Shown here: in pieces, positions 54,555 through 57,012 of the stretch
How the letters are laid out: each line of letters opens with the position of its first letter
Position numbering within the stretch: the first letter of the stretch is position 1
Assembly (NCBI RefSeq): GCF_000178955.2
Contig: NC_016631.1
Location: 3,596,001 to 3,660,000 of the forward strand
Direction of reading: 5' to 3'
Origin: Granulicella mallensis MP5ACTX8
Lineage (GTDB): Bacteria > Acidobacteriota > Terriglobia > Terriglobales > Acidobacteriaceae
Length of the DNA stretch: 64,000 nucleotides
Position numbers and translations under genes: made by a program
The notes under the pieces: model-generated
The model's database searches: none
The model's input: the letters and a program-made list of their open reading frames with translations, nothing else
What the model was told of the DNA's origin: nothing

Positions 54555-55523
54555 ATGAACCTCTTAGTTACAGGCGGCGCAGGCTACATCGGCGGAACCG
54601 TCTCGACCATCCTCATGCAGGCAGGCCACCGCGTTACCGTGCTCGACAACCTCTGCCACAGCAAGCGCGCAGAGCTGCCCGTGGGCGCGGAGTTCGTGGA
54701 AGCTGACATCGCCGACCGTCCCCGCGTTGAAGCGCTGCTGCGCGAGCTGAAGCCGGATGGCGTCCTGCACTTCGCCGCCCTGATCGAAGCTGGCGAATCC
54801 ATGCAGAAGCCCGAGATCTACTTCCGCAACAACACCGCTTCTACCCTCGCGCTGCTCGAAGCCATGCACGCCACCGGCACCAACCGCCTCGTCTTCTCGT
54901 CAACCGCCGCTGTCTACGGCGAACCGAAGTCCACGCCTATTGAAGAGACCGCCGCCCTCGCACCGACCAACGCCTACGGCGAATCCAAGCTGATGGTCGA
55001 GCAGATGCTCGGCTGGTTCCATCGCGTTCACGGCCTGCGCTACGCCTCACTGCGCTACTTCAACGTCGCAGGCGCACTCCCCGGACGCGGCGAAGCCCAC
55101 GAGCCCGAGACTCACATCATCCCCTTAATCCTGGACGTCGCCCTCGGCCGCCGCGCCAGCATCAACATCTACGGTGACGACTACCCCACCCCCGACGGCA
55201 CCTGCATCCGCGACTACATCCACGTCCGCGACCTCGCCGACGCCCACATCCTGGCCATCAAGGCACTGGGCGAACGCGAACGCATGATCCTCAACCTCGG
55301 CAACGGCAGCGGCTTTTCAGTCAAGGAAGTCATCGCCTCCGCCCGCCGCGTCACAGGCCACGCCATCCCCGCAGAGATCAAGCCCCGGCGCGACGGCGAC
55401 CCGGCACGCCTGGTCGCAGGCTCCGAAAAAGCCAAGACCGAGCTAGGCTGGCAGCCGGAGTACCCGGAACTCGATCGCATTCTGGAGAGTGCGTGGGAGT
55501 GGCATAAACAGCGTTACGCCTGA
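54555..55523 (+). CDS. galE: UDP-glucose 4-epimerase
   Basis: A 322-residue extended SDR enzyme interconverting UDP-galactose and UDP-glucose. MNLLVTGGAGYIGG is the NAD-binding start; FSSTAAVYGEP has the catalytic serine/threonine, YGESK the tyrosine and lysine; the sugar-binding part includes GDDYPTPDGTCIRDYIHV, which is typical of GalE. The frame extends back to 54396 inside galT, but the ATG at 54555 with GGAG five bases before it is correct. Last gene of the galactose operon, ended by the inverted repeat at 55530-55598. Confidence 0.95.
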   Translation: MNLLVTGGAGYIGGTVSTILMQAGHRVTVLDNLCHSKRAELPVGAEFVEADIADRPRVEALLRELKPDGVLHFAALIEAGESMQKPEIYFRNNTASTLALLEAMHATGTNRLVFSSTAAVYGEPKSTPIEETAALAPTNAYGESKLMVEQMLGWFHRVHGLRYASLRYFNVAGALPGRGEAHEPETHIIPLILDVALGRRASINIYGDDYPTPDGTCIRDYIHVRDLADAHILAIKALGERERMILNLGNGSGFSVKEVIASARRVTGHAIPAEIKPRRDGDPARLVAGSEKAKTELGWQPEYPELDRILESAWEWHKQRYA

Positions 55524-55529
55524 GCATGA

Positions 55530-55598
55530 AGCGTCAATGGTCTTTCGTCATCACCTTGAGCTTACGACTCAGGATGACGACGAAAGACCATTGACGCT
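55530..55598 (+). terminator. Long hairpin closing the gal operon (GTCATCC repeat family)
   Basis: Two arms of about 31 bp (starting AGCGTCAATGGTCTTTCGTC and ending with its inverse, three mismatches) with a seven-base loop. They hold the GTCATC/AGGATGAC core seen elsewhere. Probably ends transcription of the gal operon before the fluoride riboswitch. Confidence 0.7.
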
Positions 55599-55636
55599 CC
55601 CACCCACACCTTGTTATCGTCTCTCTAAGCATTCAT

Positions 55637-55700
55637 GGCGATGGGGTTCGCCTGCCGCTCCGCACGCGCGTAGCTGATGACTCCTACATCTCGTAGGAGG
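55637..55700 (+). promoter_or_regulatory. Fluoride riboswitch (crcB motif) with ribosome-site hairpin
   Basis: The leader of the CLC gene has the fluoride-aptamer signature: GGCGATGGGGTTCGCC (stem 1, loop GGGGT) at 55637-55652, a middle stem-loop, then GCTGATGACTCCTAC at 55673-55687. The loop GGGGT can pair with ACTCC to form the known pseudoknot (one G-U pair). The same ACTCCTAC strand (CTCCTAC, 55681-55687) is the exact inverse of GTAGGAG (55693-55699), which holds the ribosome site GGAGG (55696-55700). When fluoride is bound, the pseudoknot should keep CTCCTAC away from the ribosome site and switch translation on. The start TTG follows four bases after GGAGG. Confidence 0.9.
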
Positions 55701-55704
55701 TCCG

Positions 55705-57012
55705 TTGTCCAAAACATCACCTAGCCCCTTCCTCACAGCACAGTTCGGCCTGCTGCTCGACCTTGCCCGCTGGATTCCGATCTCCGCAGCCATAGGCATT
55801 CTCGCGGGCAGCGCATCGGCCCTTCTGCTGGCCTCCCTCCATCTCGCGACCGACGTGCGCGAATCCCATCAGTGGATCATTCTTCTGCTGGCTCCCGCAG
55901 GCGTTCTGGTCGGCCTGATGTACCACTACTTCGGCCGCTCGGTCGAAGCTGGCAACAACCTCCTCCTAGACGAGATTCACGATCCCAAGGCCGTCATCCC
56001 CTTCCGGATGACGCCGCTCATCCTGCTCGGCACTTTCCTTACGCATCTCTTCGGAGGCTCCGCCGGGCGCGAAGGCACGGCACTGCAGACCGGAGCTTCG
56101 CTGGCGGATCAACTCACGCGTCCCCTGCGCCTTGCGCCACGCGATCGTCGCATCCTGTTGATGGCAGGCATCAGCGCCGGCTTCGGCTCTGTCTTCGGAA
56201 CGCCGCTAGCCGGAGCGCTCTTCGGAATCGAGGTGCTCGCCATCGGCCGCCTCAGCTACGAGGCCCTGGCCCCCTGCATGATCGCCGCGTTCGTCGGTGA
56301 CCTGGTGACCAATGCCTGGGGAATCCATCACACGATCTACCGCGTGACCTCGGTCCCGGAGATCAACGTCAAAGGCATCCTCGCCGCAATGGCCGCCGGT
56401 GCAGCTTTTGGTCTAGTGGGCATGGCCTTCGCCAAGACAACGCACGCCATCTCCCACTTCGTCCGCAGCCGCATCCCCTTCGCTCCGTTGCGTCCAGCTG
56501 CGGGCGGCATACTCGTCACCGCCGCAGTCTTTGCTCTCGGAACGACGAAGTACATCGGCCTCGGCATTCCCACCATCGTCGCGTCGTTCGACCACAAACT
56601 GCCCGCCTACGACTGGGCCGCTAAATTCCTCTTCACCGCCGTCACTCTGGGAACTGGCTTCAAGGGGGGAGAGGTCACGCCGCTGTTCTATATCGGCTCC
56701 ACGCTAGGAAATGCCCTCTCCAGCTTGCTGCCTTTGCCTCCGTCCCTGCTTGCGGGCATGGGCTTTGTGGCAGTCTTTGCCGGCGCCGCCAACACCCCGA
56801 TCGCCTCCACTCTGATGGCGGTCGAACTCTTCGGCGCAGAAGCAGGAGCCTTTGCCGGCATCGCCTGCATCATCAGCTATCTGTTCTCAGGACACTCCAG
56901 CATCTACCAGTCGCAGCGCGTAGGACACAGCAAACACCACAGCCTGAGCGCCGACGAAGGCCTGTCGCTCGCCGTCATCGCTAAAGCACGGAGTCAACCA
57001 AGGAACGAGTAA
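55705..57012 (+). CDS. clcF: CLC-F-type fluoride/proton antiporter
   Basis: A 435-residue CLC-family protein. It has the family core but with the variant found in fluoride exporters: the usual GSGIP is replaced by EAGNNLLLDEIHDP (Asn84/85 region), and GGSAGREGTALQ carries the gating glutamate Glu123. FKGGEVTPLF is the third anion-site block. The last 40 residues, with GHSKHHSLSADE, are soluble. Fluoride export rather than chloride is strongly supported by the fluoride riboswitch just upstream. The start is TTG at 55705, four bases after GGAGG, so the ribosome site is inside the riboswitch switch helix. Confidence 0.9.
   Translation: MSKTSPSPFLTAQFGLLLDLARWIPISAAIGILAGSASALLLASLHLATDVRESHQWIILLLAPAGVLVGLMYHYFGRSVEAGNNLLLDEIHDPKAVIPFRMTPLILLGTFLTHLFGGSAGREGTALQTGASLADQLTRPLRLAPRDRRILLMAGISAGFGSVFGTPLAGALFGIEVLAIGRLSYEALAPCMIAAFVGDLVTNAWGIHHTIYRVTSVPEINVKGILAAMAAGAAFGLVGMAFAKTTHAISHFVRSRIPFAPLRPAAGGILVTAAVFALGTTKYIGLGIPTIVASFDHKLPAYDWAAKFLFTAVTLGTGFKGGEVTPLFYIGSTLGNALSSLLPLPPSLLAGMGFVAVFAGAANTPIASTLMAVELFGAEAGAFAGIACIISYLFSGHSSIYQSQRVGHSKHHSLSADEGLSLAVIAKARSQPRNE

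What the first reader, a model, noticed from the sequence alone, without database searches (positions are those of the whole stretch)
55637..55707. Fluoride riboswitch whose 3' strand masks the ribosome site of a CLC-F antiporter
The leader shows the crcB/fluoride aptamer signature (GGCGATGGGGTTCGCC and GCTGATGACTCCTAC). CTCCTAC, needed for the aptamer pseudoknot, is also the exact inverse of GTAGGAG, which carries the ribosome site, so one strand chooses between fluoride binding and translation block. The CLC protein has the GNN variant of fluoride exporters. The TTG start may further limit basal expression. The design is fully visible in about 70 bases.
Basis: partly seen in the sequence, partly recalled or inferred. 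Interest (0 to 1): 0.72.

Follow-up and report, generated by a model that had tools for sequence, protein, structure and literature searches.

The report
Fluoride-sensing RNA switch for fluoride pump
A soil bacterium's gene for a fluoride pump begins with a short RNA sensor that appears to hide the ribosome's landing site until fluoride arrives; this is a known kind of switch, with some unusual details in this bacterial family.

Summary
Rfam's fluoride aptamer matches 55628-55693 (38.5 bits, cut-off 34). Its last strand, CTCCTAC, is the exact complement of GTAGGAG, which carries the ribosome site of a CLC-F antiporter gene. The masking helix is under selection: GTA precedes GGAG in 28 of 31 CLC leaders against 0 of 98 other ribosome sites, and partners follow strand changes (0 of 2000 permutations as good). 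Translational fluoride switches are known, so this is a new member of a known kind. No fluoride response was measured.

(1) The aptamer is divergent: it lacks AACCG before P3, as do 9 of 11 CLC aptamers of its genus set. (2) In crcB leaders of relatives, the stretch at the start codon is often the complement of the other pseudoknot half (11 nt in 12 of 54; exact pattern in 18 of 298 genomes, scrambled control 0). This suggests an OFF state that captures both pseudoknot strands. The window folds that way too, but its two nearest named relatives do not, so there it may be chance. Support outside crcB leaders is mixed.

The parts
55591..55620 (+). Promoter-like site: TTGACG, 18 nt, TG-T-TATCGT (extended -10)
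   Evidence: one found, shuffles mean 0.2. By eye, relatives L032, L033, L036, L038 and L039 keep TTGACG-18-TATCTT/TATCGT; others in the list are weaker. It puts the RNA start at about 55627 (inference).
55628..55693 (+). Fluoride riboswitch aptamer, RF01734 match
   Evidence: 38.5 bits, gathering 34, E 4e-07
55637..55652 (+). P1 hairpin GGCGATGGGGTTCGCC; loop strand GGGGTT (55643-55648) is the 5' half of the pseudoknot
   Evidence: sequence; Rfam alignment; pseudoknot duplex GGGGUU/GACUCC -5.8 kcal/mol
55653..55674 (+). Shortened joining segment (no AACCG) and P3 hairpin
   Evidence: Rfam alignment shows 4 consensus positions missing; AACCG absent in 9 of 11 CLC aptamers of the genus set
55679..55684 (+). 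GACTCC, 3' strand of the pseudoknot (fluoride-bound state)
   Evidence: Rfam alignment
55681..55687 (+). CTCCTAC, switching strand (anti-ribosome-site strand in the fluoride-free state)
   Evidence: pairs with the ribosome site at probability 0.98
55693..55699 (+). GTAGGAG, partner of the switching strand; carries the ribosome site AGGAGG (55695-55700)
55702..55711 (+). Start-codon stretch CCGTTGTCCA, predicted to pair with the P1 5' side 55636-55644 (second contact: 9 pairs, one bulged U)
   Evidence: minimum free energy fold; probability 0.85 and 0.89; not predicted in nearest named relatives L032 and L033
55705..57012 (+). CLC-F fluoride/proton antiporter gene, TTG start, 435 aa

Best explanation
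It is a translational, fluoride-activated riboswitch in front of a CLC-F fluoride exporter gene. Without fluoride, CUCCUAC leaves the weak apo-aptamer and pairs with GUAGGAG, burying the ribosome site in a 7-bp hairpin with a 5-nt loop and keeping the exporter off. With fluoride and Mg2+, the aptamer holds GACUCC in the pseudoknot, GUAGGAG is freed, and the exporter is translated. Shown here: the aptamer match, the exact complementarity, the conservation and co-variation of the masking helix, and the identity of the gene. Inferred: fluoride binding by this divergent aptamer, the direction of the response, and control at translation. A second contact between the P1 5' strand and the start codon is predicted for the window but well supported only in crcB leaders of relatives.
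For: Aptamer. CLC-F. Masking helix: 27 of 31 CLC leaders hold the full 7-nt complement and the other 4 hold 5 nt. GTA precedes GGAG in 28 of 31 against 0 of 98 background sites; in the 29 leaders that hold GTAGGAG the loop runs from 5 to 19 nt, so the stem is kept while the loop varies. Over 114 leaders, the native duplex of a 10-nt strand with its downstream sequence averages -10.76 against -9.19 (sd 0.15) for permuted partners, and 0 of 2000 permutations reach it; each of the ten strand types averages a stronger duplex with its own downstream sequence than with those of other types, several types being single leaders. Window: ribosome site paired with the switching strand at probability 0.98. 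Modelled exposure of the site rises from 0.16 to 0.35 when the pseudoknot strands are barred from pairing. Energies are near balance: -26.0 with P1 and the mask, against -19.5 plus -5.8 for the pseudoknot, loop costs left out. No terminator-like site. PMC13273304 (abstract, outline, sections 33 and 35, passages) uses the P. syringae switch as a translational control and, for transcriptional members, shows co-variation in the downstream hairpin that involves the pseudoknot nucleotides.
Against: The aptamer scores only 4.5 bits above the cut-off and lacks AACCG, present in all 20 CLC aptamers of the order set (that set was picked from the best-scoring hits, so it is biased towards it). The relative L143 falls below the cut-off at 28.7 bits, and L032, a nearest named relative, gave no match at the gathering score. 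With the pseudoknot strand blocked, a weaker 5-bp hairpin (AUCUC/GAGGU) still covers part of the ribosome site, so full exposure is not predicted; the modelled rise exceeds 0.3 in only 13 of 31 CLC leaders and not in the window. The fold's z-score is only -1.34. No fluoride response was measured.
Confidence: 0.88

Rival explanations
1. The leader controls transcription: the CTCCTAC/GTAGGAG hairpin acts as an attenuator, or the untranslated RNA is cut short by Rho.
For: Many fluoride switches are transcriptional; in PMC13273304 323 of 1901 tested were functional in a transcription assay (section 35). In the wider phylum some leaders end in hairpins followed by T runs, such as L255, L229 and L264.
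Against: No terminator-like site in 55500-55760. The hairpin contains the ribosome site and the start codon lies 5 nt after it, with no T run.
Confidence: 0.05
2. The aptamer is a decayed relic in this genus: the core is kept by recent descent, fluoride is no longer bound well, and the hairpin merely lowers translation all the time.
For: Low score, loss of AACCG, sub-threshold relatives.
Against: The P1/loop and GCUGAUGACUCCUAC core letters match the consensus in the window apart from one loop letter, and the masking helix persists across divergent relatives with varying loops. A relic would not be expected to keep both.
Confidence: 0.07
3. GTAGGAG is only a good ribosome site, and its match to CTCCTAC follows from the aptamer strand happening to resemble an anti-ribosome-site sequence.
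For: CUCC in the aptamer consensus is by itself an anti-ribosome-site sequence, so 4 of the 7 pairs come free.
Against: GT before AGGAG is not expected to add to ribosome binding (general knowledge), yet GTA occurs in 28 of 31 CLC leaders and 0 of 98 other sites; partners follow strand changes.
Confidence: 0.03

Closest known systems
Translational fluoride riboswitch of Pseudomonas syringae eriC(F) (Baker et al. 2012, recalled, not held; named a translational control in PMC13273304, passages)
   Same: Fluoride aptamer in front of a CLC-F/EriC(F) gene; control at translation.
   Different: Here the aptamer lacks the AACCG segment, the masking hairpin has the shortest loop seen among the CLC leaders (5 nt), the start is TTG, and a second start-codon contact is predicted. 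I did not compare the P. syringae leader letter by letter.
Transcriptional fluoride riboswitches of Bacillus cereus and Thermotoga petrophila (PMC11077080, passages)
   Same: The pseudoknot 3' strand is shared with a mutually exclusive downstream hairpin.
   Different: There the hairpin is an intrinsic terminator; here it is a ribosome-site mask with no T run.
CLC-F antiporter of PDB entries 6d0j, 6d0k and 6d0n
   Same: E 4.5e-64 for 6d0j over residues 26-406; GREG region and G-x-N motif align.
   Different: GNN in the window, GMN in 6d0j.

Membership tests
Fluoride riboswitch RF01734 | Covariance model score above the curated cut-off | tested here: met
   38.5 against 34 bits
Fluoride riboswitch RF01734 | P1, pseudoknot and P3 can form | tested here: met
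   Alignment; pseudoknot duplex of 6 pairs, -5.8 kcal/mol, with a G-U where the consensus has A-U
Fluoride riboswitch RF01734 | Usual, though not required by the cut-off: joining segment AACCG before P3 | tested here: not met
   4 consensus positions deleted; AACCG absent in the window and in 9 of 11 genus CLC aptamers. I treat it as a common feature, not a defining one.
Fluoride riboswitch RF01734 | Binds fluoride | not testable with these tools
   Needs in-line probing or a reporter
Translational (ribosome-site-masking) expression platform | Ribosome site complementary to a strand that the ligand-bound aptamer needs | tested here: met
Translational (ribosome-site-masking) expression platform | No intrinsic terminator | tested here: met
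   (simple pattern scan)
CLC-F fluoride/proton antiporter | CLC family membership | tested here: met
   PF00654, 244.6 bits
CLC-F fluoride/proton antiporter | Closer to CLC-F than to other solved CLCs | tested here: met
   6d0j 4.5e-64; the only other CLC listed, Sll0855 (3nd0), 6.8e-08. NCBIfam chloride ClcA/ClcB equivalogs far below their cut-offs
CLC-F fluoride/proton antiporter | G-N/M-N in place of the chloride motif GSGIP, and gating Glu (motifs recalled) | tested here: met
   GNN and GREG in the ORF, aligned to GMN and GREG of 6d0j
CLC-F fluoride/proton antiporter | Fluoride transport | not testable with these tools
   Needs an assay

The most novel reading that the evidence does not exclude
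Translational fluoride riboswitches of Acidobacteriota use a double-lock OFF state. The mRNA captures both halves of the aptamer's pseudoknot at once: the 3' strand by the ribosome site, and the loop/P1 5' strand by the start-codon stretch (GAACTCCATCG-TG against CGATGGAGTTC). This gives a three-way junction that hides the ribosome site and start codon and dismantles P1. It is clearest in crcB leaders; the window's CLC-F leader would be a weaker example.
Probability: 0.4. Interest if true: 0.5.

Novelty: new member of a known kind. Interest (0 to 1): 0.32.

Why it matters
It is a compact, complete example of a switch in which one strand chooses between binding an ion and blocking the ribosome, in a phylum where the searched library shows little on this switch (2 papers hold both 'fluoride riboswitch' and 'acidobacteria'). 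The comparative set makes two points testable: how much of the fluoride aptamer can be lost while regulation persists (the missing AACCG segment in this genus), and whether some fluoride switches take apart both strands of the pseudoknot rather than one. The mechanistic papers seen here (PMC11077080, PMC13273304) deal mainly with transcriptional members.

Tried and rejected
Terminator control: no terminator-like site.

Second contact as a general feature of CLC leaders: exact complement to the P1/loop strand is hardly enriched there (0 of 31 reach 7 nt; 10 of 31 reach 5 nt against 5.9 expected). Energies lean that way (mean z -0.63; 13 of 31 below -1, 1 above +1). The contact is predicted at probability over 0.5 in 10 of 31, in 8 of 31 by a slightly different measure, and in 6 of the 17, the window among them; it is absent in the two nearest named relatives L032 and L033 (0.01 and 0.00). 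I noticed after the fact that the 4 leaders with a shortened mask (L036, L038, L040, L047) all have it (Fisher p 0.006, table entered by hand). The set of 31 shows no such correlation (Spearman 0.06, p 0.76), so I do not rely on it.

Co-variation of the second contact: only 10 of 20 loop classes pair better with their own downstream sequence than with that of other classes, 10 of 20 worse, the window's class and the second minority class (GATGGAGTCC, 20 leaders) among the worse. In the phylum set 5 of 58 leaders have a complement of 7 nt or more.

Rows dropped or chosen: the 116 leaders are the 30 loci, 27 of 28 rows (L147, 23.3 bits, left out) and 59 regions that I picked by hand from the best-scoring rows, so low-scoring aptamers are under-sampled. 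In one search, L045, L046 and L048 (no aptamer) were left out. The phylum set is 58 hits picked from the rows; L224, L228, L235, L242 and L284 were delivered or fetched but not used, and L274 and L285 were skipped. Background sites within 60 nt after CTCCT[AG]C were excluded. Gene classes and start codons were assigned by simple motifs, not by profiles; the crcB class uses a wider motif than that.

Papers: Baker 2012 and Stockbridge 2012 are not held; what I say of them is recalled or comes from passages in other papers. Searches listed nothing that I recognised as describing a start-codon/P1 contact in fluoride switches; I saw listings, and the library lacks most subscription journals.

Full report
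What is there. The window lies at 3596001-3660000 of a 6,237,577-base single-contig genome. Nearest named relatives of the CLC gene are Granulicella (87 and 86% identity). Rfam finds a fluoride riboswitch at 55628-55693 (+), 38.5 bits, gathering score 34, E 4e-07, the only one reported in the genome. Reading the sequence: P1 and its loop at 55637-55652, the pseudoknot loop strand GGGGTT at 55643-55648, P3 at about 55657-55674, the pseudoknot 3' strand GACTCC at 55679-55684, CTCCTAC at 55681-55687, a five-base loop ATCTC, GTAGGAG at 55693-55699 with AGGAGG at 55695-55700, and TTG at 55705. Upstream, a promoter-like TTGACG-18-TATCGT with an extended -10 at 55591-55620 would start the RNA just before the aptamer.

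The gene. The 435-aa ORF is a CLC (PF00654, 244.6 bits). Its best solved relative is a CLC-type fluoride/proton antiporter (6d0j, E 4.5e-64); another CLC, Sll0855, follows at 6.8e-08. The window's AGNNLLLDEI aligns with the antiporter's QGMNLVFLVG, and GREG with GREG.

Is the masking helix more than chance? Of 298 genomes of the order, 262 hold a fluoride riboswitch at E <= 0.001 and 250 above the cut-off; of 28 in the genus, 24 and 21. I collected 116 leaders (30 loci, 27 of the 28 rows, 59 regions), 114 of them distinct. The 7-nt strand has its full complement downstream in 41 of 114, against 0.26% of shuffled downstream sequences. The native duplex of a 10-nt strand with its downstream sequence averages -10.76 kcal/mol against -9.19 (sd 0.15) when partners are permuted, and no permutation of 2000 reaches it. 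Ten strand types occur (88 leaders share CTCCTAC, several types are single leaders), and each averages a stronger duplex with its own downstream sequence than with those of other types. In the 31 CLC leaders, 27 have the full 7 nt and the other 4 have 5 nt. GTA stands before GGAG in 28 of 31, against 0 of 98 ribosome sites of other genes in the same material; in the 29 leaders with GTAGGAG the intervening loop varies from 5 to 19 nt. In the window and 16 named relatives, the ribosome site pairs with the switching strand at probability 0.84-1.00. Relatedness inflates such counts, but the change of partner with strand is hard to get without selection for pairing. In crcB leaders the mask is weaker (4 or 5 nt in 35 of 42, 7 nt in 4 of 42).

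How it most likely works. The hairpin alone is worth -9.2 kcal/mol. With P1 kept, the masked state is -26.0; the aptamer scaffold with the pseudoknot strand blocked is -19.5, plus -5.8 for the pseudoknot duplex before loop costs and ion binding. So the two states lie close together and fluoride could decide. When the pseudoknot strands are barred from pairing, modelled exposure of the ribosome site rises from 0.16 to 0.35 in the window and from 0.09 to 0.35 on average in 31 CLC leaders, by more than 0.3 in 13 of 31. The rise is partial because the five-base loop can still pair with GAGGU. The window's pseudoknot has a G-U pair where the consensus has A-U (-5.8 against -6.7). PMC11077080 (passages) reports for transcriptional members that stronger pseudoknot pairing can reduce or break switching, which would fit a weakened one. 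No terminator-like site was found.

What is known. PMC8814607 (passage) says fluoride switches use terminators in some cases and presumably translation in others, citing Weinberg 2010 and Baker 2012. PMC13273304 (abstract, outline, sections 33 and 35 and passages) uses the Pseudomonas syringae switch as a translational control and shows, for transcriptional members, co-variation in the terminator hairpin that involves the pseudoknot nucleotides. PMC7541441 (passages) drives reporters with the P. syringae eriC(F) switch. The window is therefore a new member of a known kind. Non-acidobacterial CLC leaders fetched here often also carry a downstream complement of the pseudoknot strand, sometimes as a terminator (13 leaders read by eye).

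The Rfam alignment lacks four consensus positions before P3. AACCG in that segment is present in 20 of 20 CLC aptamers of the order set but in only 2 of 11 CLC aptamers of the genus set, the window being among the 9 without it. The order set was drawn from the best-scoring hits, which favours AACCG, so the contrast is overstated. The letters of the core that I recall from the T. petrophila structure as contacting the ion site are intact in the window. Whether affinity is kept is the main uncertainty.

Second thing: a possible second lock. The window's minimum-free-energy fold (-31.0) goes beyond the mask: 55636-55644, the P1 5' side, pairs with 55702-55711, which contains the start codon (9 pairs, one bulged U; probability 0.85 and 0.89). 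In crcB leaders of the same family the stretch before the start codon is often the exact complement of the P1/loop strand. At least 7 nt is found in 24 of 54 (0.5 expected from shuffles); 12 of 54 have 11 nt (GAACTCCATCG), each ending on the first base of the start codon. The 61 non-CLC leaders have a mean duplex z of -1.24 (34 below -1, 5 above +1), and the contact is predicted in 29 of 54 crcB leaders. Over all 54, positions -8 to 0 are 54-83% conserved and the linker at -27 to -15 30-61%; in the 27 picked by lock-like motifs, partly for those very letters, the figures are 85-100% and 33-67%. The exact double-lock pattern occurs in 18 of 298 genomes of the order, in 14 of 70 genera, and the scrambled control in 0 of 298; none of the 21 genomes of the window's genus searched has it. 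All 7 crcB leaders that I picked for folding, for having the match, form this outer helix; in L163 and L176 the ribosome-site hairpin beside P3 is plain as well, a three-way junction.

Does the second contact co-vary? In part. In other families of the phylum with a different loop, the start-proximal stretch can match that loop: GGACTCCAT for GGGGATGGAGTCC in L261 (at least GGACTCCA in L258), and GACTTCATCCC, inside the coding region, for GGGATGAAGTCCC in L276; but only 5 of 58 leaders there have 7 nt or more. Permutation of partners gives 0 of 2000 as good for all 169 leaders, 1 of 5000 for the 58 with minority loops and 5 of 5000 for the 56 of the phylum set, with a mean gain of only about 0.75 kcal/mol. 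Against this, only 10 of 20 loop classes do better with their own downstream sequence than with others', and the window's class (GATGGGGTTC, 29 leaders) does worse (-12.53 against -13.14). Shuffle z averages -1.30 in 113 order and genus leaders (38 below -2, 1 above +2) and -0.62 in 56 phylum leaders (7 below -2, none above +2). I read this as a probable two-strand capture in crcB leaders, unproven for the window: its nearest named relatives L032 and L033 lack it (0.01 and 0.00), and 6 of 17 CLC leaders have it. I found no description of it in the searches listed under Tried and rejected.

Verdict. The finding itself is ordinary in kind and well made. The wider interest is in the variant aptamer and in the start-codon complement of the relatives.

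Noticed in passing
window 55530-55598: A near-perfect palindrome (31-nt arms, 90% complementary) abuts the promoter. Its 49-base core recurs through the genome (41 matches listed, several counted on both strands), so it looks like a REP-type element; the outermost arms, which include the TTGACG of the promoter, are not part of the other matches, while TTGACG is also present in relatives without the palindrome (L032, L033, L036, L038, L039).
   Followed up: partly
L112-L115 (G200:C1:1428000-1500000) and L116-L117 (G176:C1:1698000-1737999): Some genomes of the same family hold up to 17 fluoride riboswitches. Two islands with similar gene order carry 15 in 72 kb and 9 in 40 kb. Ten proteins were scanned from the first: among them CLC-F, CrcB, S-adenosylmethionine synthetase, a cyclopropane synthase, a fumarase-type lyase, an RND pump, an NADH-dehydrogenase-like protein and a dynamin-like GTPase. 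This resembles, on a larger scale, the fluoride island of Enterobacter cloacae FRM (PMC5533749, abstract and passages).
   Followed up: partly
L204, L207, L209 (order set): crcB-like aptamers whose pseudoknot has changed on both sides (loop GAGGT with strand ACCTC), a natural compensatory change, with a downstream partner that suits the changed strand.
   Followed up: partly
L122, L124, L126, L129, L133-L135, L138-L141, L144, L145 (genus set): A second group of fluoride aptamers in the genus (GGTGATGGAGTTCACC) whose strand runs on as CTCCT..CAGG into a likely hairpin with sequence downstream; where their genes start is mostly unclear.
   Followed up: no
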